A DNA stretch of 64,000 bases from Streptomyces halobius (GTDB lineage Bacteria > Actinomycetota > Actinomycetes > Streptomycetales > Streptomycetaceae): assembly GCF_023277745.1 (NCBI RefSeq), contig NZ_CP086322.1, forward strand, positions 6,076,001-6,140,000. The letters are read 5' to 3'. How positions within the stretch are numbered: position 1 is the stretch's first letter; every line of letters starts with the position of its first letter. A program made the position numbers and the translations under genes. The notes under the pieces were generated by a model. The model was not told the origin of the DNA, did not search any database, and saw only the letters and a list, made by a program, of their open reading frames with translations. Shown here piece by piece: positions 12,966-21,754 of the stretch.

Positions 12966-14330
12966 TCAGCGTGCACGGGACCTGAGCCCTTTCCGCCGAC
13001 TCATGGTGACGGCCAGGGCGAGGGCGGCGGCCGTCGCAGGCATGACGTACGCCGGCCCGGGGCCCGCCAGATGGTCCACCGCCCAGCCGCCCGCCGCCGA
13101 ACCGGCCGCGATACCGGCCAGCAGGGCGGTGACGGCCAGGGTCATCCCCTCGTTCAACTGGGCCGCCGGGGTGCGGGATTGGAGCAGCCCCATCCCGGTG
13201 ACCATGGTCGGCGCGGTGGCCATCCCCGCCAGGAGGAGAGCGACGGCCAGGGCCGGCAGACTCCCCGTTGAGGCGGCGGCGAGGGGCAGCGGCATCAGGG
13301 CGGACATGGCGGCCACACAGCCCAGGAAGCGGCTGCCCGCCGGGCCCGTCGGCCGCAGCAGCCCGTAGAGCAGGCCCGCCGCACAGGAACCGGCCGCCTG
13401 GAGCGCGAGCATCCCGCCGGCCGCGGGCCGTACGCCGTGGACGTCCGCGAAGGCGATCGTCACGACCTCCAGGGAGCCGAAGACCGCGCCGGTGGCGAGG
13501 AAGGTGAGGAGGAGGGGCGACAGGCCCGGAAGGCGGAGCGGAGAGCGCGGACGCCCCGTCGTCCTGGGGGCGACGGGCGGCTCGGTACCGCGCTGCGCCG
13601 CGAAGAGCAGTACTCCCGTCAACAGCAGGGCGGCCGCGACCGCCGTACCCGCCTCCGGCAAGAAGGCGGTGCAGAGCAGTGTCGCCAGCACCGGACCGAG
13701 CATGAAGCAGAGCTCGTCCGCCGCCTGCTCGAAGGAATTCGCGGTGTGCCGGGCGGCGGGGTCGCCCCGGAAGAGGTGGGCCCAGCGCGCGCGTGACATT
13801 CCGCCGGTGTTCGGGGTGGTGGCGGTGGCGATGTACGAAGCGAAGAGGGCCCAGGCGGGCGCGTCGTAATGGACGCACAGGAGGAGGGAGAGGGAGCCGA
13901 GGGCGGCGATGACGGTGGCCGGGACGGCGATCCGGGACTGGCCGTATCGGTCGATGAGGCGCGCGGTCAGCGGCCCGACCAGCGCCGTTGCCGTCAGCCC
14001 CGTCGCGACGACGGCACCGGCCAGCGCATACGAGCCGCGCGTCCCGGCGATCATCAGGACCGCGCTGACACTGAGCATGCCCATCGGCAGCCGGGCCAGC
14101 AGATTGGCGGCGGTGAACGCGCGGGTCCCGGGGACGGCGAAAATCCGGCGGTAGGGGGCGGTGAGGGTGACCCCTCGTCCATGGCGACGTACGCGGGGGG
14201 ACGGCCGTACGGGCGGGGACGGTGGTACGGGCGGGGCGGTGACGGGACGCGGGACGACGGAACGCGGGGCGACGGGGCGCAGGACGGCGGGGCGCGGGAC
14301 GACGGGACGGGCGCCGAGGAAGAGGATCAT
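12966..14330 (-). CDS. MFS transporter
   Basis: 454-residue major facilitator with about 12 predicted helices. Typical MFS loop motif GPLTARLIDRYGQSRI lies near residue 120, and there is a long central loop with RTTGRPRSPLRL. The N-terminus (1-52) is an odd Pro/Arg/Val repeat (PRPAVLRPVAPRSVVPRPV) coded by degenerate tandem repeats. All Val codons there are GTC or GTA, so no alternative start exists before the first helix and 14330 is the only candidate. Family resemblance is to DHA1 drug-efflux-like carriers; substrate unknown. It is divergent from a LysR regulator 121 bases away, which probably controls it (inference). Confidence 0.82.
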   Translation of the reverse strand: MILFLGARPVVPRPAVLRPVAPRSVVPRPVTAPPVPPSPPVRPSPRVRRHGRGVTLTAPYRRIFAVPGTRAFTAANLLARLPMGMLSVSAVLMIAGTRGSYALAGAVVATGLTATALVGPLTARLIDRYGQSRIAVPATVIAALGSLSLLLCVHYDAPAWALFASYIATATTPNTGGMSRARWAHLFRGDPAARHTANSFEQAADELCFMLGPVLATLLCTAFLPEAGTAVAAALLLTGVLLFAAQRGTEPPVAPRTTGRPRSPLRLPGLSPLLLTFLATGAVFGSLEVVTIAFADVHGVRPAAGGMLALQAAGSCAAGLLYGLLRPTGPAGSRFLGCVAAMSALMPLPLAAASTGSLPALAVALLLAGMATAPTMVTGMGLLQSRTPAAQLNEGMTLAVTALLAGIAAGSAAGGWAVDHLAGPGPAYVMPATAAALALAVTMSRRKGLRSRAR

Positions 14331-14451
14331 GCCTTCTACCGTCGCGGCAGCCCTCGTCGCCCGTCCAACACCTGATCAGCACCCATTCACGCACCCGTGT
14401 TGTCAATGGGGCCTGCCGCCTTCCGCCTGCCGCGAATGCCAGGATGGCCCG

Positions 14452-15423
14452 GTGCCGTACGACATAGCCCCCCGGCTGCTGCGCGCCTTCACCGCCGTCG
14501 CCGACGAGCTCCACTTCACCCGCGCCGCCGCCCGGCTGTACGTGGCCCAGCAGGCGTTGAGCCGCGACATCCGGCGGCTGGAGCGCGAGTTGGGCGCCGA
14601 CTTGTTCGTACGGACCACGCGCCAGGTCGCCCTCACGGCGCACGGGGCACGTCTGGTCCCTTACGCACGGCGGGTGTTGGCGGCCCACGACGAGTTGGCC
14701 GCCGCGTTCCGCGCCACGCCCGAGCGCCCGCTGCTGGTCGATGTCGGGGTGCCGATCGGTACGGCCCACCGGGTGCTGGAGGAGGCCCGGCGCCGGGTGC
14801 CCGACAGCTGCGAGCTGGTCGCCCGCTTCCACAGCGGGCTCACGGGTGCGGCGGAAGAGCTGCGGGCCGTACGGCTGGACGTCTCCTTCGGCCGCTTCGC
14901 CGCACTGCCACCCGCCGTACGGGCCGGCCTCGACCATCAGCCGGTCCGTCTGGAGCCGATGGCGGTGCTGCTCCCCGAGGAACACCGGCTGGCCGCACGG
15001 CCCACCGTCCCACTCGCGGAACTGACCGGTGAGACCCTGTACGCCGCCGCCGGGAACCCGCAGGCCGTCGAGTGGACGGACCTGGCGGCGCGCCTCTTCG
15101 AGGGGCGGGGGATCGCGATGGCCGCACCGTTCCCGGAGATCGAGGGTTCGCAGGAATTCACGCGGGTGGTGCGCAAGCAGGGGTGGGCGGTGCTGGCGAG
15201 CGTGGAGTTCATCGACGTGCCGGGGATGGTGCTGCGGCCGGTGGTCGATCCCGTACCCCTGTCGCCGGTGGGGATGGTGTGGCGGCGCGGGCTGAGGCAT
15301 CCGGGGCTGGACGCGCTGCGGGCGGCCGCGCGGGAACTCGGCGAACGGGACGCGTGGTTGGCGCCTCCCGGGGACGGCTGGTGGCTCCCGGAGGCGGACG
15401 CCACGGCGATGGGCCTGCGCTGA
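14452..15423 (+). CDS. LysR-family transcriptional regulator
   Basis: 323 residues. N-terminal winged helix-turn-helix (LLRAFTAVADELHFTRAAARLYVAQQALSRDIRRLERELGADLFVRTTRQVALTAHG) and a C-terminal effector-binding domain. GTG 14452 with AGGA seven bases upstream gives the normal LysR start; the frame is open upstream for 97 codons, but these encode the reverse side of the MFS N-terminal repeats. By the usual LysR rule it likely regulates the divergent MFS gene from the 121-base shared promoter. Confidence 0.9.
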   Translation: MPYDIAPRLLRAFTAVADELHFTRAAARLYVAQQALSRDIRRLERELGADLFVRTTRQVALTAHGARLVPYARRVLAAHDELAAAFRATPERPLLVDVGVPIGTAHRVLEEARRRVPDSCELVARFHSGLTGAAEELRAVRLDVSFGRFAALPPAVRAGLDHQPVRLEPMAVLLPEEHRLAARPTVPLAELTGETLYAAAGNPQAVEWTDLAARLFEGRGIAMAAPFPEIEGSQEFTRVVRKQGWAVLASVEFIDVPGMVLRPVVDPVPLSPVGMVWRRGLRHPGLDALRAAARELGERDAWLAPPGDGWWLPEADATAMGLR

Positions 15424-15605: not shown

Positions 15606-16142
15606 GTGCGGCGGCGCTCACTTCTCGCGGCGACGGCGGCCGCGCTCATTTTGACCGTCTTCGGCCTGGGGCTGGTCGGCTGCGGCTCACCGCGGATGGC
15701 GGCCCTGCACGCCGACTGCACGACCAAAGACCTGAAGTGGAAGCTCGCCGTCCTGAAGAAGAAGCCGCACAGCACACATCGTGAGGCCCGGCTCACCGCC
15801 GTCAACGAGGGCCCGGGAGCGTGTGTCTTCCGCGGTTTCCCGGTCTTCGAGGTCCATGTCGGCAAGGGCCCGGAGTCGGACGGGAAGGGGCGCGGCCAGA
15901 CCATGCCGATCGACCTGCGGCGCGGCGGCACGGTGACGACCAGCCTGCGCTACAAGGACTCCGACCGGGGTACGCCGTCCGCCGCCTGCATGGTCAGCAA
16001 TGACACGGCCGTGGTCGCCGCACCGCGCGACACCACGGGCGGCCGGGCGATAGCGGCCCGGGACGAGACGGGCGGACGGGCTCGGATGACCATCTGCGAG
16101 GACACGGTCTGGATGAGCCCGCCCAAGGAAATCGCCGAGTAG
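15606..16142 (+). CDS. Secreted lipoprotein, DUF4232-like
   Basis: 178 residues. Signal peptide VRRRSLLAATAAALILTVFGLGLVGC with lipobox LVGC (lipidated Cys at about 26). The mature part shows the DUF4232-like pattern: early Cys, then AVNEGPGACVFRGFPVFEV, a Gly-rich central strand and a late Cys near the end. GTG 15606 has a GGGGGAG site. The upstream 180 bases hold only short GGACGACTGCGGA-type repeats. Function unknown; such lipoproteins are abundant in Streptomyces. Confidence 0.8.
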   Translation: MRRRSLLAATAAALILTVFGLGLVGCGSPRMAALHADCTTKDLKWKLAVLKKKPHSTHREARLTAVNEGPGACVFRGFPVFEVHVGKGPESDGKGRGQTMPIDLRRGGTVTTSLRYKDSDRGTPSAACMVSNDTAVVAAPRDTTGGRAIAARDETGGRARMTICEDTVWMSPPKEIAE

Positions 16143-16194
16143 CCCCGGTTGTTACGGGGCCGCCGTTGCCGCGAAGGCGGCGAACGACGCCGCG

Positions 16195-16824
16195 TTGATG
16201 GTCGGGGGTTTCCAGCAGCACGAACGGGCCGTCGAGCCTGGCGTGAGTCGGGCAGTTCAGAGGCAGGATCTGAATCTGGACGCCGGGGAGCTCCGCGCAT
16301 GTGCGCAGGTGGGAGTTCTGGCCGCATTACCTCGGGTCCACCGAGCCCGCCCAACAGGATGGCTCTGCGATGACGAAACTGGCGCTGACAGGTTTCGGCT
16401 TGTGCACGATCTGCTGACGGTCCTGCCGGGTTGTGACGCGCTGCTCGATCTCCTCTTCGGTGAGGTGCGGGATAACGCCGCTGCGCAAGGTGGCCCGTGC
16501 GTAGTCCGAGGTCTGGAGCAGACCGGGGATGACCACGTTCTCGTACCAGCAAAGCGCGATGGCCTCCCGCTCGAAATCCATGAACTCCTCGGCCCACACC
16601 GGGAACTTCTCCCGCTTCGGCAGCTTCTCCACACCCACCTTGAGCGCGCCGCCTGTCTTCAGAATCCGGTCGATCTCCACTGCCGGGCGCGGCAACAACG
16701 CCCGCCTCCCCTGCTCGATGAAGGCGATGGTCTGCTCGGACACGCTCACGAGATTGCCGAGTTCGCGTTGGGTGAGGCCGGCGTTCGCGCGGAACAGCGC
16801 CATGATCGCGCCGAGGACTTCCAT
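16195..16824 (-). pseudogene. Decayed XRE-family regulator (HTH + DUF5753)
   Basis: An intact helix-turn-helix (LTQRELGNLVSVSEQTIAFIEQGRR) and the start of the DUF5753 domain (EFMDFEREAIALCWYENVVIPGLLQTSDYARA) read in frame from 16824 to about 16367. The frame then breaks. The conserved AILLGGLGGPEVMR lies in a second frame, and LRTCAELPGVQIQILPLN through GPFVLLETPDHQ in a third. Translation after DHQ has no homology, so about 70 C-terminal residues are gone. Two frameshifts plus truncation indicate a pseudogene rather than one sequencing error. Intact relatives often pair with a DUF397 protein; none is seen here. It lies just beyond the end of the lasso operon, on the same strand. Confidence 0.75.
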
Positions 16825-16897
16825 GTTCGAGGACTGCCTGTTTCTTTGGCTTCATGCCGACCCGCTCCCCTGTGACGCCCTTCGTGACCGCGCGTGC

Positions 16898-16931: not shown

Positions 16932-17342
16932 TCAGCGCGGGATGGACAGCAGCGGCTGGTAAAGGCGGGTGTCGTCGGGTTCGCCGATCGGGTGGCCGTC
17001 GACGGCGACCCAGGCGCGGGCGCGGAACGGCTCCGTGCGCACCCCCGTGCACCACTGGGGCCAGCGGCCGCGCGTACGGCACAACAGGGCGGTGGCGAGG
17101 GAGCGTTGGAGGCAGCCCTGGCCCGTGCAGCGGGCGTTGACCGTGACGACGGCGTGCCGGGCCCGTAGCGCGTCGGGCGCGGTGGCGGGGCGGGCGCCGC
17201 GGCGTACGCGGTCCAGGACGCGGCAGATGGTGCGCGGGGAGCGGCGCGCCAGGAGCCGCGCTGCGGCGACGCAGCAGCGGGCGGTGCAGCGTTCGGTGAG
17301 GGTGAGGTGTGCGCGCGGGTCGATGGAGAGGGGGACGCTCAA
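16932..17342 (-). CDS. Lasso peptide leader peptidase, B2 type (catalytic His replaced)
   Basis: 136-residue transglutaminase-like protein of the PF13471 type that cuts the leader from lasso precursors. TTG 17342 overlaps the B1 stop by four bases (TTGA), giving translational coupling; longer readings run into B1 sequence. The nucleophile Cys is present at 77 in CTGQGCLQRSLATALLC. In the family the general-base His lies in a FxAHAWV motif; here the sequence is FRARAWVAVDG, with Arg (CGC) at residue 109. The rest of the fold, including GEPDD and the C-terminal YQPLL, is conserved. If the alignment is right, the enzyme may be inactive or compromised. A His to Arg change needs only one transition (CAC to CGC). 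Confidence 0.85.
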   Translation of the reverse strand: MSVPLSIDPRAHLTLTERCTARCCVAAARLLARRSPRTICRVLDRVRRGARPATAPDALRARHAVVTVNARCTGQGCLQRSLATALLCRTRGRWPQWCTGVRTEPFRARAWVAVDGHPIGEPDDTRLYQPLLSIPR

Positions 17343-17602
17343 GAGGTCACCAGCTTCGCGGACTTGAGGGAGGAGAGCAGGGCCTTTGTGTCCGCTTCGA
17401 CGCGGTCGGCGGCCTCGGGGTGGCGGATGCGCAGTTCGGCGACGGCTGATGTGCAACTCCCGCCGGCCAAAAGGTGTTCAAGAATCAGAGCGCCGGTTTC
17501 GTTGAGTTGCCAGTAGCGGCCCGTTCGGGTGTTGAGGAGGATCATGCCGCCGGGGGTGCGGGTGCTGGTGATGTCGGGGGCGAGGGAGACGGAGAGGGGC
17601 AT
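17339..17602 (-). CDS. Lasso peptide leader-binding protein, B1 type (PqqD-like RRE)
   Basis: 87 residues, a RiPP recognition element. The PqqD-like fold is visible in MILLNTRTGRYWQLNETGALILEHLLAGG and the following helices. It binds the precursor leader, in particular the YxxP motif, and delivers it to B2 and C. The upstream gap to the cyclase stop is 75 bases; the downstream B2 gene overlaps it. In this order (A-C-B1-B2) it matches actinobacterial lasso operons. Confidence 0.88.
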   Translation of the reverse strand: MPLSVSLAPDITSTRTPGGMILLNTRTGRYWQLNETGALILEHLLAGGSCTSAVAELRIRHPEAADRVEADTKALLSSLKSAKLVTS

Positions 17603-17677
17603 CAGGCTCCTTCGGCGGGAGATGCGGGGGCATGCGGGAGATACGGGATGCGGGAGGTAAGGGGGCAGCAGTCGCAG

Positions 17678-19648
17678 CTACGGGGCGGCCGTGGCGGTTG
17701 CGGAGGCAGGAGTGACAGCGGCCGGGGGCGGGAGTTGGCCGTACGGGAGGGAGCGCAGCCAGTATTCGGCGGCGAGTGTGGGGTCGAGGGGGAGCAGGGT
17801 GTGGGTGTGCGGATGGAGGGAGGTGAGGACGTGACGTAGGGCGTCGGGGCGGATCAGGCCCAGGCGGGCCAGGAGTGAGTCGTCGCAGAGGGCGGAGAGT
17901 GCGCGACGGTGGCGGCGTAGGCCCGCGTAGACCTCGGCGCTGTGGTCGCCTTTGGTGCCGCGGCCGAGCACGGCGTCGGGGACGAGGCCGCGCATGGCGG
18001 TGGCGAGCAGGGGCTTGTATGCGCCGGTCTCGGTGTGGCCGGCGAGACGGACGGTGAGTGCCGCCTTGATGACGGCGTCGTCGAGAAAGGGGGCTTCGTA
18101 GGCGACACCTTGGGCCGAGGCCACCGCGTCGATGCCGCGGACGATCTCTCCGGCGCGTACGGCGGCGCGTACGGTCTCGTGCTGAGCGCGCAGCGCCGCG
18201 TACGGCTCGGGCGCTTCGGCGGCCGCTTCGCGCAGCAGGCGGCGGACGGTGGTGACCGCGTCCGGGTGTGCCCAGGGCGGCATGCTGGGGGCGATCTCCC
18301 AGGCGGCGCCGGTGGTGCCGTGCTGCTCGGTGCAGGTGGCCAGCCACTGGGGGTACGAGTCGCCGTTCCAGAGGGTGTGCAGGCTGTCCCGGAGGGGGCG
18401 CAGGGGGTCGGGGAGTGTCCAGCGGCCGAGGCGCCGGGCCCTGAGGGGCTGGCGGGCGGTGCGGAGGTCGCGGCGGGCGAGTGAGTGCAGCGCCACCGGG
18501 CGAGGGTTCAGTGCCGCCGGGCGGGGGTCAAGTGCCACCGGGCGGGGGCTGAAGAGTTCGTCGCCGCCGACACCGACCAGATGCAGCCGGGAGCCGCGTT
18601 CGGCGACGAGGCGGGCGTGGTGGGAGAGCCGGGCACTCTCCCTGATCGCGGCGAGCGGGCCGGCCGGGTCGGTGTGGCCGGGGTCGGAGGGCGGGGTGTA
18701 CCAGGTGGGCACCTCGGCGTAAGGAAGGGAGAGATGTTCGCCGACGTTGCCGCCGCCGGTGTGGTCGCCGGTGCTGAGGTGGGCCGCGCTGCGGGCGCTC
18801 CAGAGGTTGTCGTCGTTGGCCGGATCGCGGCACTGCCATGCGGTGGTGATCAGGCGAGTGTGCGGGGCGCGGGCGGCCAGGAAGCACAGGCTGGTGGAGT
18901 CCATGCCTCCGGAGAGGTCGGCGCTGAGCGTCCCGTGGCGCGTACGGACCCGGACGGCCGCGCTGAGGGCGTCCCGTACGGCCTCGGCGGCGTCCGGCAG
19001 GGGCGTGTCCGGTGCGGGCGGCTGCCACCAACGCCGCACGACGTGGCGGCCGTTGGGGGCGAAGGTGAGGTAGTGGCCCGGTGGTACGGCGTGGACCGAC
19101 CGCCAGGCCTGGCGCAGGGCGAGGGGGAGCGGGGCAAAGGGGGTGAGCAGACGGGCGGCCAGGGTCTCTTCGTCGACGGTTCCGAGGTGGGGTGCGCGGT
19201 CCAGGCCGGTTTTCGCGGCCTCGCACCCCAGGGCGGCCAGATTCTGGGGGCGGTTGCCGGCGACGGCGATGCCGCCGATGTCCGTGTGATGTAGCTGACG
19301 GTACGTCGAAAGACTTCCCTGGCAGCGGACTTCGGGACCGAAGGCCGCCATGAGAAAGAAGCTGCCGGGCAGGTCGCCTAGGTGTGCGCGGAGGTGGTCG
19401 CCGAGGTCGTCGAGGCTGGTCAGGCGGCGGAGCAGGCGGGTCAGCCCGTCCCGGGTGGCGGAGGTGGTACCGAGCAGTGCGATGCGGCGCGGGCCGATCC
19501 GTGCCGTGATGGTCTCGTCGCGGCTCCAGTGCCCGACGATCCAGGGGCGGCCGGAGGCGTACGGCACGATGCGGAGGGTTGGCCTCCGGTGCAGGCAGGC
19601 GATGAGCCGGTCGGCGGCGGGATGGTCGGGCAGGACGAGGAAATCCAC
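17678..19648 (-). CDS. Lasso peptide macrolactam synthetase (C protein, asparagine-synthase-like)
   Basis: 656 residues. The C-terminal asparagine synthase domain carries the ATP pyrophosphatase motif SGGMDS at 246-251 (LSADLSGGMDSTSLCFLAA). The N-terminal glutaminase-like domain begins VDFLVLPDHP and lacks the N-terminal catalytic Cys, as expected for lasso cyclases that activate an Asp/Glu side chain with ATP rather than use glutamine. It should join Gly1 of the core to the acidic residue. Start GTG 19648 with AAGGAG 12 bases upstream. It is 123 bases after the precursor stop, with an attenuator-like hairpin between. Confidence 0.92.
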   Translation of the reverse strand: MDFLVLPDHPAADRLIACLHRRPTLRIVPYASGRPWIVGHWSRDETITARIGPRRIALLGTTSATRDGLTRLLRRLTSLDDLGDHLRAHLGDLPGSFFLMAAFGPEVRCQGSLSTYRQLHHTDIGGIAVAGNRPQNLAALGCEAAKTGLDRAPHLGTVDEETLAARLLTPFAPLPLALRQAWRSVHAVPPGHYLTFAPNGRHVVRRWWQPPAPDTPLPDAAEAVRDALSAAVRVRTRHGTLSADLSGGMDSTSLCFLAARAPHTRLITTAWQCRDPANDDNLWSARSAAHLSTGDHTGGGNVGEHLSLPYAEVPTWYTPPSDPGHTDPAGPLAAIRESARLSHHARLVAERGSRLHLVGVGGDELFSPRPVALDPRPAALNPRPVALHSLARRDLRTARQPLRARRLGRWTLPDPLRPLRDSLHTLWNGDSYPQWLATCTEQHGTTGAAWEIAPSMPPWAHPDAVTTVRRLLREAAAEAPEPYAALRAQHETVRAAVRAGEIVRGIDAVASAQGVAYEAPFLDDAVIKAALTVRLAGHTETGAYKPLLATAMRGLVPDAVLGRGTKGDHSAEVYAGLRRHRRALSALCDDSLLARLGLIRPDALRHVLTSLHPHTHTLLPLDPTLAAEYWLRSLPYGQLPPPAAVTPASATATAAP

Positions 19649-19706
19649 GGCGCGGTACCGCTCCTTGGGCGCATTCCTTGGGTGCTGGGGGTGTGGGCCC
19701 GGAGGT

Positions 19707-19738
19707 CCTGCCGGGGCGGGGAGGCGCCTCCCGGCAGG
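19707..19738 (-). terminator. Attenuator-like hairpin between lasso precursor and cyclase
   Basis: CCTGCCGGG pairs with CCCGGCAGG, with an inner GGAGGCGCCTCC palindrome giving an alternative fold. Such structures in RiPP operons limit read-through so that precursor mRNA exceeds enzyme mRNA. Confidence 0.55.
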
Positions 19739-19771
19739 ACCGGTTCAGGACCGGTTACGGACGGCCGGTCG

Positions 19772-20053
19772 CTACTCCTGCCAGAAGTGCCCGCCGAAGG
19801 CATCGTGATGCCAGCCGACGAGTCCCGGTGTCAGCTCGGCGAAGTCGCCCACATCGGCCAGTTCCGGCACCTCGTACTCGACCTGCTCTACGTCCCCGCC
19901 GCACTCGGCATGCTCGACGTCCCCGCCGCACTCGGCCTGCTCGACCTGCTCGGTGTAACCGGCGTGCTCGCCGTACCCGACGTGCCCGCCGTACCCGGCG
20001 TGCTCCCGCGGCTGCTGAAGCTCCTGCAGCAGTTCCTGCATGAGATCCTGCAT
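19772..20053 (-). CDS. Lasso peptide precursor
   Basis: 93-residue precursor. ATG 20053 (MQDLMQELLQELQQ) has a GGAAGGAAG site nine bases upstream. The leader ends with the family pattern YxxPxLxxxGxFxxxT (YEVPELADVGDFAELT) and Thr at -2. The predicted 17-residue core is GLVGWHHDAFGGHFWQE: Gly1 and Asp8 would close an eight-residue ring, leaving a nine-residue tail with bulky His, Phe and Trp. It resembles anantin (Gly1, Gly4, Trp5, Asp8, Phe10, Gly11 shared). My calculated monoisotopic mass of the lactam is about 1960.9 Da. The 76-residue leader is unusually long, with Gly/Tyr/His and AECGGDVE repeats. No dedicated ABC exporter gene follows the cluster. Confidence 0.88.
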   Translation of the reverse strand: MQDLMQELLQELQQPREHAGYGGHVGYGEHAGYTEQVEQAECGGDVEHAECGGDVEQVEYEVPELADVGDFAELTPGLVGWHHDAFGGHFWQE

Positions 20054-20344: not shown

Positions 20345-21754
20345 ATGACAACCGAGGCAGCACGTACCGGCGGCAGTAGTGGCAGGCGAGGAGGGCACTG
20401 GATCGAGCACTGGGATCCGGAGAACGAGACATTCTGGGCGGAGTCGGGCGAGCGGATCGCACGGCGGAATCTGTGGTTCTCCGTGATGTCCGAGCACATC
20501 GGGTTCTCCGTGTGGAGCCTGTGGTCGGTGATGGTGCTGTTCATGGGGCCGGAGTACGGGCTGGCCCCGGCCGACAAATTCTTCCTGGTCGCGGTGACGA
20601 CACTGGTGGGCGCCGTGCTGCGGGTGCCGTACACCTTCGCCGTGGCGAAGTTCGGCGGGCGCAACTGGACCATCATCAGCGCGCTGATGCTGCTCGTGCC
20701 CACCACCGCCGCGTGGTTCGTGATGGAACCCGGCACCTCATACGGGACCTTCCTGCTGATCGCGTCGCTCACCGGTATCGGAGGCGCCAACTTCGCCTCG
20801 TCGATGACCAACATCAACTCCTTCTATCCGCTGCGGAAGAAGGGCTGGGCGCTGGGCATGAACGCCGGCGGCGGCAACATCGGCGTACCGGTCATCCAGC
20901 TGGTCGGCCTGCTGGTCATCGGTACCGCGGGCGCCGCGCATCCGCACATCGTGCTGGGTATCTACATTCCGCTGGTCGTCGTCTCGGCGGTGTGCGCCGC
21001 GCTGTTCATGGACAATCTCGCCCCGGTGAAGAACGACACCGGCGCGGCCAAGGACGCCGCCCGTGAACCGCACACGTGGATCATGTCGCTGCTGTACGTC
21101 GGCACCTTCGGGTCCTTCATCGGCTACAGCTTCGCCTTCGGCCTGGTCCTGACGACCCAGTTCGACCGCACGCCGCTGCAGGCCGCTTCCCTGACCTTCA
21201 TCGGCCCGCTGCTGGGCTCCCTGGTCCGGCCGGTCGGCGGGCAGCTGGCCGACCGCTTCGGCGGGGCGCGCATCACCCTGTGGAACTTCGCCGCGATGGG
21301 CGCCGCGACCCTCGTCGTGATCTTCGCCGCTGTGCAGGAGTCGCTGCCGCTCTTCCTGGTCGGCTTTATCGCCCTCTTCGTGCTGACCGGTGTGGGCAAC
21401 GGCTCGACGTACAAGATGATCCCGGGCATCTTCCAGAACAAGGCGCTGGAGCGCGGACTCACCGGCGAGGCCGCCGCGGCCTACGGCCGTCGGCTCTCCG
21501 GCGCCTCGATGGGCCTCATCGGCGCGGCCGGTGCGGTCGGCGGCCTGGGCATCAACCTCGCCTTCCGGCAGGCGTTCATGACGACGGGTTCCGGGACCCC
21601 GGCCTTCGTCTCCTTCCTGGCCTTCTACGCCCTGTGCCTGGTCGTGACCTGGGCCGTATACCTGCGGCGGCCGGCGGGCGCACGGTCCGCGGCGGAGCCG
21701 GGAACCGGCGAGGCGGACGAGGAGGCCCCGCGGCCCGTGTACGCCGAGGTCTGA
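20345..21754 (+). CDS. narK: Nitrate/nitrite transporter (MFS, NarK type)
   Basis: 469-residue NNP-family carrier with about 12 helices. Nitrate signature regions are present: GIGGANFASSMTNINSFYPLRKKGWALGMNAGGGNIGVPVIQ and, in the second half, GVGNGSTYKMIPGIF. ATG 20345 has GGGAGG five bases upstream and begins the family N-terminus (WIEHWDPENETFW). It imports nitrate or exports nitrite across the membrane. The next gene, a NnaR-type regulator, is linked to nitrate assimilation in Streptomyces. Confidence 0.93.
   Translation: MTTEAARTGGSSGRRGGHWIEHWDPENETFWAESGERIARRNLWFSVMSEHIGFSVWSLWSVMVLFMGPEYGLAPADKFFLVAVTTLVGAVLRVPYTFAVAKFGGRNWTIISALMLLVPTTAAWFVMEPGTSYGTFLLIASLTGIGGANFASSMTNINSFYPLRKKGWALGMNAGGGNIGVPVIQLVGLLVIGTAGAAHPHIVLGIYIPLVVVSAVCAALFMDNLAPVKNDTGAAKDAAREPHTWIMSLLYVGTFGSFIGYSFAFGLVLTTQFDRTPLQAASLTFIGPLLGSLVRPVGGQLADRFGGARITLWNFAAMGAATLVVIFAAVQESLPLFLVGFIALFVLTGVGNGSTYKMIPGIFQNKALERGLTGEAAAAYGRRLSGASMGLIGAAGAVGGLGINLAFRQAFMTTGSGTPAFVSFLAFYALCLVVTWAVYLRRPAGARSAAEPGTGEADEEAPRPVYAEV

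What the first reader, a model, noticed from the sequence alone, without database searches (positions are those of the whole stretch)
16932..20053. Compact lasso-peptide gene cluster with an anantin-like predicted core
Precursor, ATP-dependent cyclase, RRE and leader peptidase lie in the A-C-B1-B2 order on one strand, without a dedicated ABC exporter. The core GLVGWHHDAFGGHFWQE would form a Gly1-Asp8 eight-residue ring and shares Gly1, Gly4, Trp5, Asp8, Phe10, Gly11 with anantin. The His-rich ring and the FGGHFWQE tail are distinct, so the compound may be new. This is my best candidate for an undescribed small-molecule product. Calculated lactam mass is about 1960.9 Da (monoisotopic, my arithmetic).
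Basis: partly seen in the sequence, partly recalled or inferred. Interest (0 to 1): 0.82.

Follow-up and report, generated by a model that had tools for sequence, protein, structure and literature searches.

The report
Lasso-peptide cluster with altered leader peptidase
A real gene cluster for a small knotted peptide whose sequence was in no paper searched, but the enzyme that should cut the peptide free lacks its key histidine, and several related bacteria appear to have lost most of the same cluster and kept only its ring-closing enzyme.

Summary
In detail: window 16932-20053 (minus strand) encodes a lasso-peptide cluster A-C-B1-B2 with domain hits for every part and no dedicated exporter. 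The predicted core GLVGWHHDAFGGHFWQE (lactam 1960.876 Da) was in no paper of the library.

The interpretation needs three corrections. (1) B2 residue 109, His in 117 of 120 database rows, is Arg here; the leader peptidase is probably impaired and the product may not be made. (2) 'Anantin-like' rests on 6 of 17 positions; uncharacterised Streptomyces cores share up to 8. (3) The leader has a 43-residue repeat expansion and Pro at -1.

At the same locus 16 strains carry a related cyclase: 4 complete and intact-looking, 2 complete with damaged B2 (this window; NRRL S-337), 1 C+B2, 9 C alone. The window's cyclase is sister to the main solo clade (91/95). Those solo cyclases stay in frame under purifying selection, while 6 of 7 have altered active-site motifs.

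The cluster is a new member of a known kind; the solo cyclases are the less expected result.

The parts
19772..20053 (-). A: precursor peptide, 93 aa (P0001)
   Evidence: NF033521 lasso leader, 23.9 bits, cut-off 19; start ATG behind GGAAGGAAG, matching the start region of relatives' precursors
19775..19825 (-). predicted core GLVGWHHDAFGGHFWQE, residues 77-93; Gly1-Asp8 ring
   Evidence: translation; boundary inferred from Thr at -2 and Gly at +1 as in relatives
19826..19876 (-). conserved leader motif YEVPELADVGDFAELTP, residues 60-76; Pro at -1 is unusual
   Evidence: NF033521 match 60-75; 0 of 10 distinct precursors of this type have Pro at -1
19877..20005 (-). repeat-expanded leader segment, residues 17-59 (43 aa)
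   Evidence: tandem repeats 19876-19945 (27 nt) and 19897-20005 (18 nt); absent from the relatives' precursors
17678..19648 (-). C: lasso cyclase, 656 aa; motifs SGGMDS, GGDELF, YKP and TKG intact
   Evidence: PF00733 108.6 bits; motif alignment
18474..18548 (-). in-frame tandem repeat (3 x 7 aa, PRPVALD-like) after GGDELF in C, two units more than in relatives
   Evidence: TRF; alignment against relatives
17339..17602 (-). B1: RRE / PqqD-like leader-binding protein, 87 aa
   Evidence: PF05402 51.1 bits, NF033530 92.3 bits
16932..17342 (-). B2: transglutaminase-like leader peptidase, 136 aa, TTG start overlapping the B1 stop
   Evidence: PF13471, NF033537 (scanned as the longer 174-aa frame); AlphaFold2 model pLDDT 89.2
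17016..17018 (-). B2 codon 109 CGC (Arg) where relatives have His (AHAW motif)
   Evidence: of 120 rows 117 His, 2 Arg (window and P0111), 1 gap
17112..17114 (-). B2 Cys77, position of the catalytic Cys, intact
   Evidence: 120 of 120 rows Cys; N-cap of helix 78-90 in the model
16327..16824 (-). disrupted HTH/DUF5753 regulator gene directly downstream of B2 (context, not part of the biosynthetic set)
   Evidence: PF19054, PF13560; the reading frame is broken
20345..21754 (+). divergent MFS transporter, locus backbone, not a cluster exporter
   Evidence: PF07690; next to the LysR gene without any cyclase in 5 of 8 other regions fetched
14161..15423 (+). LysR regulator, other flank of the conserved locus
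   Evidence: PF00126, PF03466

Best explanation
This is a lasso-peptide cluster of Streptomyces, sitting between a LysR/DUF4232 pair and an MFS/uroporphyrinogen-synthase pair. By the established pathway, B1 binds the YxxP.L...G.F leader motif, B2 cuts behind the Thr-x dipeptide and C adenylates Asp8 and joins it to Gly1. In this strain the leader-cutting step is probably impaired, because the catalytic His of B2 is Arg, and the cluster is most likely at an early stage of loss. The product, if made, needs another peptidase. In sister lineages the same locus has shrunk to the cyclase gene alone; in the larger of these lineages it is kept as a constrained protein, mostly with an altered active site, and so probably has another role. 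Shown: gene set, motifs, substitution, synteny, selection. Inferred: loss of peptidase activity, direction of change, new role of the solo cyclases.
For: Domains and order. B2 residue 109 is Arg; of 120 rows 117 have His, 2 Arg, 1 a gap, while Cys77 and Glu121 are kept in 120 of 120. In the first alignment 9 of 9 relatives have His. In the model Cys77 caps helix 78-90 and residue 109 is on strand 106-114, which I read as the papain/transglutaminase arrangement (recalled). A Cys-His-Asp triad is described for McjB-type peptidases (passages of PMC11420955 and PMC7533575). Pro at -1, leader and cyclase repeats and a broken regulator gene beside B2 would fit relaxed upkeep. At the locus, of 16 strains 4 are complete, 2 complete with damaged B2, 1 C+B2, 9 C only. 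The window is sister of the 7-member solo clade (91/95, not starred); L020+L071 is sister of the S-337 cyclase (100/100). Solo cyclases: omega 0.060 for four members against 0.091 for four complete-cluster cyclases, omega = 1 worse by 222 log units; no frame-breaking indel in C in 6 of 6 pairs, against 4-9 per pair in the upstream stretch.
Against: The cyclase of the window shows no sign of relaxation: its motifs are intact and its branch is comparable with its neighbours', so any loss is recent. P0111 (10 member sequences) also has Arg, so Arg may be tolerated. Only one sequence of this precursor and B2 was found, so an error at one base cannot be excluded. Two other B2 loci in the genome, one with AHAW intact, might act in trans. 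The structure comparison of the B2 model was inconclusive.
Confidence: 0.66

Rival explanations
1. The cluster is fully functional. Arg109 is tolerated, or is a sequencing error, and the strain makes the predicted lasso peptide of 1960.88 Da.
For: All other parts are intact; P0111 carries the same Arg; C shows no relaxation.
Against: His is otherwise near-invariant (117 of 120) and sits where a catalytic His would (triad); Pro at -1 and the broken neighbour gene point the same way.
Confidence: 0.22
2. The peptide is made with help: another B2 of the genome, or an unrelated protease, removes the leader, and C closes the ring.
For: Two further B2 loci in the genome; the B2 at 2.33 Mb has AHAW. 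The title of Zyubko et al. 2019, seen only in a reference list (the paper itself is not held), reports lasso synthesis without leader peptidase.
Against: The other B2s are distant (46% and 34% identity) and stand beside other precursor types.
Confidence: 0.25
3. The solo cyclases in sister species are only slowly decaying leftovers whose long open frames persist because high-GC DNA has few stop codons.
For: Active-site motifs are altered; in S. lydicus and NBRC 110611 all motifs are worn, insertions are present and omega is higher (0.179 for L020, L071, L070 together).
Against: omega 0.060-0.108 in the main solo clade; NG86 0.23-0.33 among L017, L018, L021 and L024, 0.34-0.55 for the other pairs of that clade; no frame-breaking indels in 6 of 6 pairs; a shared [GS]RR replacement in 7 of 8 database groups.
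Confidence: 0.3

Closest known systems
Split-B lasso-peptide clusters of Actinobacteria (A-C-B1-B2)
   Same: Gene set, order, leader motif with Thr at -2, Gly1 and Asp8 in the core
   Different: B2 lacks the catalytic His; leader carries a repeat expansion; no exporter gene
Anantin / ulleungdin (class II lasso peptides; sequences from Table 1 of PMC12427821)
   Same: Gly1, Gly4, Trp5, Asp8, Phe10, Gly11 (6 of 17 and 6 of 15)
   Different: His6-His7 in the ring, GHFWQE tail; some uncharacterised Streptomyces cores share more positions (up to 8 of 17), others fewer (5)
Complete clusters at the same locus: S. monomycini (L013), Streptomyces sp. CB02923 (L014), G048, G036
   Same: Same locus, same gene order, cyclase 63-64% and B2 73-76% identical
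   Different: B2 has AHAW; short leaders; cores GFTGEHSDNWGGMHSTFW, GFHGHHWDTFGGRGHGWW, GYTGELSDSWGGMHSTFW, GFHGELSDSWGGLHSTFW
Solo cyclases of the S. noursei group, annotated 'asparagine synthase-related protein' or similar (database groups P0122-P0129)
   Same: The members seen in loci lie at the same locus and form the sister clade of the window's cyclase
   Different: No A, B1 or B2 beside those members; TKG replaced by [GS]RR in 7 of 8 database groups (context of the database-only members not checked)

Membership tests
Lasso-peptide biosynthetic cluster | Precursor with YxxPxL...GxF leader, Thr at -2, small residue at +1 and Asp/Glu at 7-9 | tested here: met
Lasso-peptide biosynthetic cluster | RRE (B1) | tested here: met
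   NF033530 92.3 bits, cut-off 70
Lasso-peptide biosynthetic cluster | Transglutaminase-like B2 domain | tested here: met
   PF13471 86.4 bits, NF033537 105.1 bits
Lasso-peptide biosynthetic cluster | Complete catalytic triad in B2 | tested here: not met
   position 109 is Arg, His in 117 of 120 rows; bears on activity, not on homology to B2
Lasso-peptide biosynthetic cluster | Asparagine-synthase-like cyclase with ATP motif | tested here: met
   PF00733 108.6 bits; SGGMDS, YKP, TKG intact; below the two curated cyclase cut-offs
Lasso-peptide biosynthetic cluster | Threaded, ring-closed product | not testable with these tools
   needs mass spectrometry and NMR
Anantin group | Core sequence close to GFIGWGNDIFGHYSGDF | tested here: not met
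   6 of 17 identical
Anantin group | Cyclase grouping with the anantin cyclase | not tested
   motif GFIGWGN in 0 of 392 genomes, so no anantin cyclase was in hand

The most novel reading that the evidence does not exclude
In the S. noursei group a lasso cyclase has outlived its own pathway. Precursor, RRE and peptidase are gone from the locus, the ring-closing site has in most members changed in a shared way (TKG to [GS]RR, Tyr to Gly), and the protein is kept by purifying selection for a new, non-lasso role. The window shows the preceding stage, with the peptidase inactivated first; the S-337 / NBRC 110611 / S. lydicus lineage went the same way independently.
Probability: 0.45. Interest if true: 0.62.

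Novelty: new member of a known kind. Interest (0 to 1): 0.42.

Why it matters
As biology, the locus gives a graded series from complete cluster to solo cyclase in related strains, in two lineages on the tree, which makes the question of what happens to a natural-product enzyme after its pathway is lost directly testable.

Tried and rejected
Rejected: the long reverse-strand frame at 15950-16855 as a gene (no Pfam hit; the real HTH/DUF5753 gene is in another frame and is broken). Rejected: the MFS gene as exporter (backbone gene). Rejected: the solo cyclases as trans-acting enzymes for precursors of this leader type elsewhere in the genome. With the 47-aa L014 precursor as query, of the 10 genomes with a reduced locus (G297-G304, G320, G136) 1 has a match at E 0.05 or better, S. 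rhizoryzae (G301), about 2 kb from a partial B2 match with a stop inside; Streptomyces sp. CT34 (G297) has no B2 match in its genome.

Led nowhere: solved-structure sequence searches for C and B2 gave no match. Foldseek with the B2 model had 0 of 52 matches at E of 0.001 or better, and VIA-align gave only middling Z, best 6.9, with many papain/transglutaminase-like thiol enzymes but also unrelated proteins in the list: inconclusive. The plasmid search with the precursor gave no match. The protein search with the precursor found only itself among 13 candidates. The anantin motif was in 0 of 392 genomes. Paper searches for solo or degenerate lasso cyclases gave nothing relevant, but their terms were broad, so this is weak evidence of absence. 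Papers: only passages were seen of PMC10885120, PMC7549694, PMC5974421, PMC7533575, PMC9266682, PMC13352647, PMC12427821, PMC11420955 and PMC5067487; all others are known from listings only.

Limits: loci were found through the cyclase or precursor, so strains that lost the whole cluster are not counted among the 16. L024 is a partial contig (its A side is off the contig). L070 shows synteny on one side only, because its contig ends. Genome draws were samples of the genus (295 genomes, 392). In one search only 3 candidates per genome were scored. IQ-TREE omega used one ratio over each set. The tree has 20 rows and left out L024, L026-L029 and all database-only cyclases. A2 holds 54 of the 120 B2 rows and was used for the fold. 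One search scored 7992 candidates and listed 120 of 282 matches.
Full report
What is there. The minus strand of 20053-16932 reads A (93 aa), C (656 aa), B1 (87 aa) and B2 (136 aa). Domain scans support each: A NF033521, B1 PF05402/NF033530, B2 PF13471/NF033537, C PF00733. C falls below the curated cut-offs of the two lasso/macrolactam cyclase models (NF033561 214 of 300 bits, NF033535 45 of 525), so its role rests on PF00733, the intact active-site motifs and its neighbours. The start of B2 is most likely the TTG at 17342, which overlaps the stop of B1; the domain scans used the longer open frame (174 aa).

The core. GLVGWHHDAFGGHFWQE and five short strings (a nine-residue piece of this core and pieces of four kin cores) were found in 0 papers of the library. 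Against anantin (GFIGWGNDIFGHYSGDF, Table 1 of PMC12427821, passages seen) 6 of 17 positions agree. The five precursors of other clusters at the same locus agree at 5 to 7 positions, and the four distinct ectopic precursors of relatives at 5 to 8. The kinship visible by synteny and leader is therefore with this Streptomyces set; a link to anantin beyond the spacing pattern is not shown. The motif GFIGWGN was in 0 of 392 genomes, so the anantin cyclase could not be placed.

The leader. The conserved part (residues 60-76) matches five relatives' leaders at 10 to 13 of 17 positions. Before it the window has 43 residues with 27-nt and 18-nt tandem repeats that the relatives' precursors lack; a protein search with the whole precursor found only itself. 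Position -1 is Pro; in the 10 distinct precursors of this type (L003, L004, L005, L006, L009-L014; L008 is identical to L003) it is Leu, Arg or Glu. C carries a 7-aa x 3 repeat after GGDELF.

The peptidase. B2 has Arg at residue 109 in FRARAWV where relatives have FRAHAWV. In the first alignment 9 of 9 relatives have His. In the 120 listed database rows (129 passed the threshold), which include the window's own, 117 have His, 2 Arg (the window and P0111, Streptomyces sp. NPDC058475) and 1 a gap (P0044, the truncated B2 of NRRL S-337); Cys77 and Glu121 are present in 120 of 120. Passages of two papers describe a Cys-His-Asp triad in McjB-type peptidases (PMC11420955; PMC7533575). That residue 109 is this His is my inference from its conservation, from the motif, and from an AlphaFold2 model (pLDDT 89.2, 54 rows) in which Cys77 caps helix 78-90 and residue 109 lies on strand 106-114. 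Structure comparison did not settle the fold by itself. The codon differs from that of L013 and L014 by one transition (CGC against CAC). The genome holds two further B2 loci; that at 2.33 Mb, beside a citrulassin-like core, has AHAW (the citrulassin name is recalled).

The locus. LysR - DUF4232 - [B2 B1 C A] - MFS - uroporphyrinogen synthase is shared by relatives. In 5 of 8 other regions of the same genus that I fetched, the LysR gene stands next to the MFS gene with no cyclase between; of the other 3, two have about 4.5 and 6 kb between them, and one has no LysR match in the 9 kb upstream of an MFS gene cut by its contig end. Counting distinct strains with a cyclase at this locus gives 16. 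Complete and intact-looking: L013, L014, L064, L065. Complete with damaged B2: the window and L070 (NRRL S-337, B2 frame broken between the Cys and His regions; a draft-genome error is possible). C and B2 only: L071 (S. lydicus). C only: L015, L016, L017, L018, L019, L020, L021, L068 and the partial L024. DUF4232 was not detected in L020 and L071.

The tree. In a 20-row cyclase tree the window is sister to the seven solo cyclases L015-L019, L021, L068 (support 91/95, below the starred threshold); L020 and L071 are sister to L070 (100/100). Reduction to a solo or near-solo cyclase thus happened at least twice, if loss is the direction. In both cases the nearest complete cluster found has a damaged B2. 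Two cases are too few to call this a rule.

Selection on the solo cyclases. GY+F3X4 single-ratio omega is 0.060 (L017, L018, L021, L068), 0.085 with L019 added, 0.108 for all seven, 0.091 for the four complete-cluster cyclases and 0.179 for L020/L071/L070; omega fixed at 1 is worse by 222, 267, 325, 188 and 152 log units in that order. NG86, which ignores the strong GC3 bias, gives 0.23-0.33 among L017, L018, L021 and L024, 0.34-0.55 for the other pairs of that clade and 0.26 for the complete pair L013/L014. Between L017, L018, L021 and L068 the cyclase frame has no frame-breaking indel in 6 of 6 pairs, while the 460-550 bases upstream have 4 to 9 per pair. Of the seven solo cyclases in the tree 6 have a changed YKP or TKG motif; L016 (S. 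albospinus) has all motifs intact. In the 8 database groups closest to S. noursei (P0122-P0129; genomic context checked only where they match a locus above) 7 have Arg for the Lys of TKG and Gly for the Tyr of YKP; among the other 112 rows Lys is kept in 105. If the reduction happened once at the base of the clade, the motif change came later. In the second lineage (L020, L071) the motifs are worn down further and omega is higher, which looks more like decay.

How it most likely works. Standard lasso logic applies: B1 holds the leader, B2 would cut between Pro and Gly1, C joins Gly1 to Asp8. Two features of this strain fall on the cutting step, Arg109 and Pro at -1, and I judge that step impaired (about 0.66 for the whole explanation). 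Against this: C shows no relaxation (its branch is ordinary), P0111 has the same Arg, one sequence may be wrong at one base, and other peptidases could act.

What is new. The cluster is a new member of a known kind. The set of solo, constrained, mostly active-site-altered lasso cyclases is the more unusual observation; two searches found no paper on it, with broad terms, in a library that lacks most subscription journals.

Noticed in passing
L085:7370-7498, L086:7371-7499 and 13049-13177, L087:8704-8844 (G036); L088:8716-8576 (G048): Ectopic lasso precursors with this clade's leader but no C, B1 or B2 match (tblastn E 1e-4) in the 18-19 kb fetched around them; two are identical and lie in a 12.7-kb duplication (98.6%). 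One enzyme set may serve several scattered precursors.
   Followed up: partly
L015:5834, L016:5835, L017:5818, L019:5822, L021:5732, L068:6237: A 15-codon frame (for example MHRPPQRITGGRPGS) lies between the MFS and cyclase genes, about where the precursor start lies in complete clusters, in 6 of 7 solo loci examined; in L018 a 13-nt insertion shifts the frame and a 21-codon frame ends alike.
   Followed up: partly
window 16327-16824 (-): HTH/DUF5753 regulator with a broken frame between B2 and DUF4232; in L013 and L014 the gap there is too short to hold it.
   Followed up: partly
L072:6399-9101 (G000 about 2.324-2.327 Mb): Second lasso cluster in the same genome with a citrulassin-like core LLQRNGNDRLIFSKN (the citrulassin name is recalled).
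   Followed up: no
L073 (G000 about 1.298-1.301 Mb): Third lasso-type locus with B2, B1 and a distant cyclase (29% over part); a possible precursor ends GKYAEDSADKGRYFE.
   Followed up: no
L071:5436-8035: S. lydicus keeps an intact-looking B2 beside a motif-worn cyclase, with no A or B1 detected.
   Followed up: partly
L007 (G149), L074 (G095), L075 (G055): Precursor-like frames whose cores contain CCGRWxDN (two adjacent ones in L007, one printed in each of L074 and L075), a different core type beside a related cyclase.
   Followed up: no
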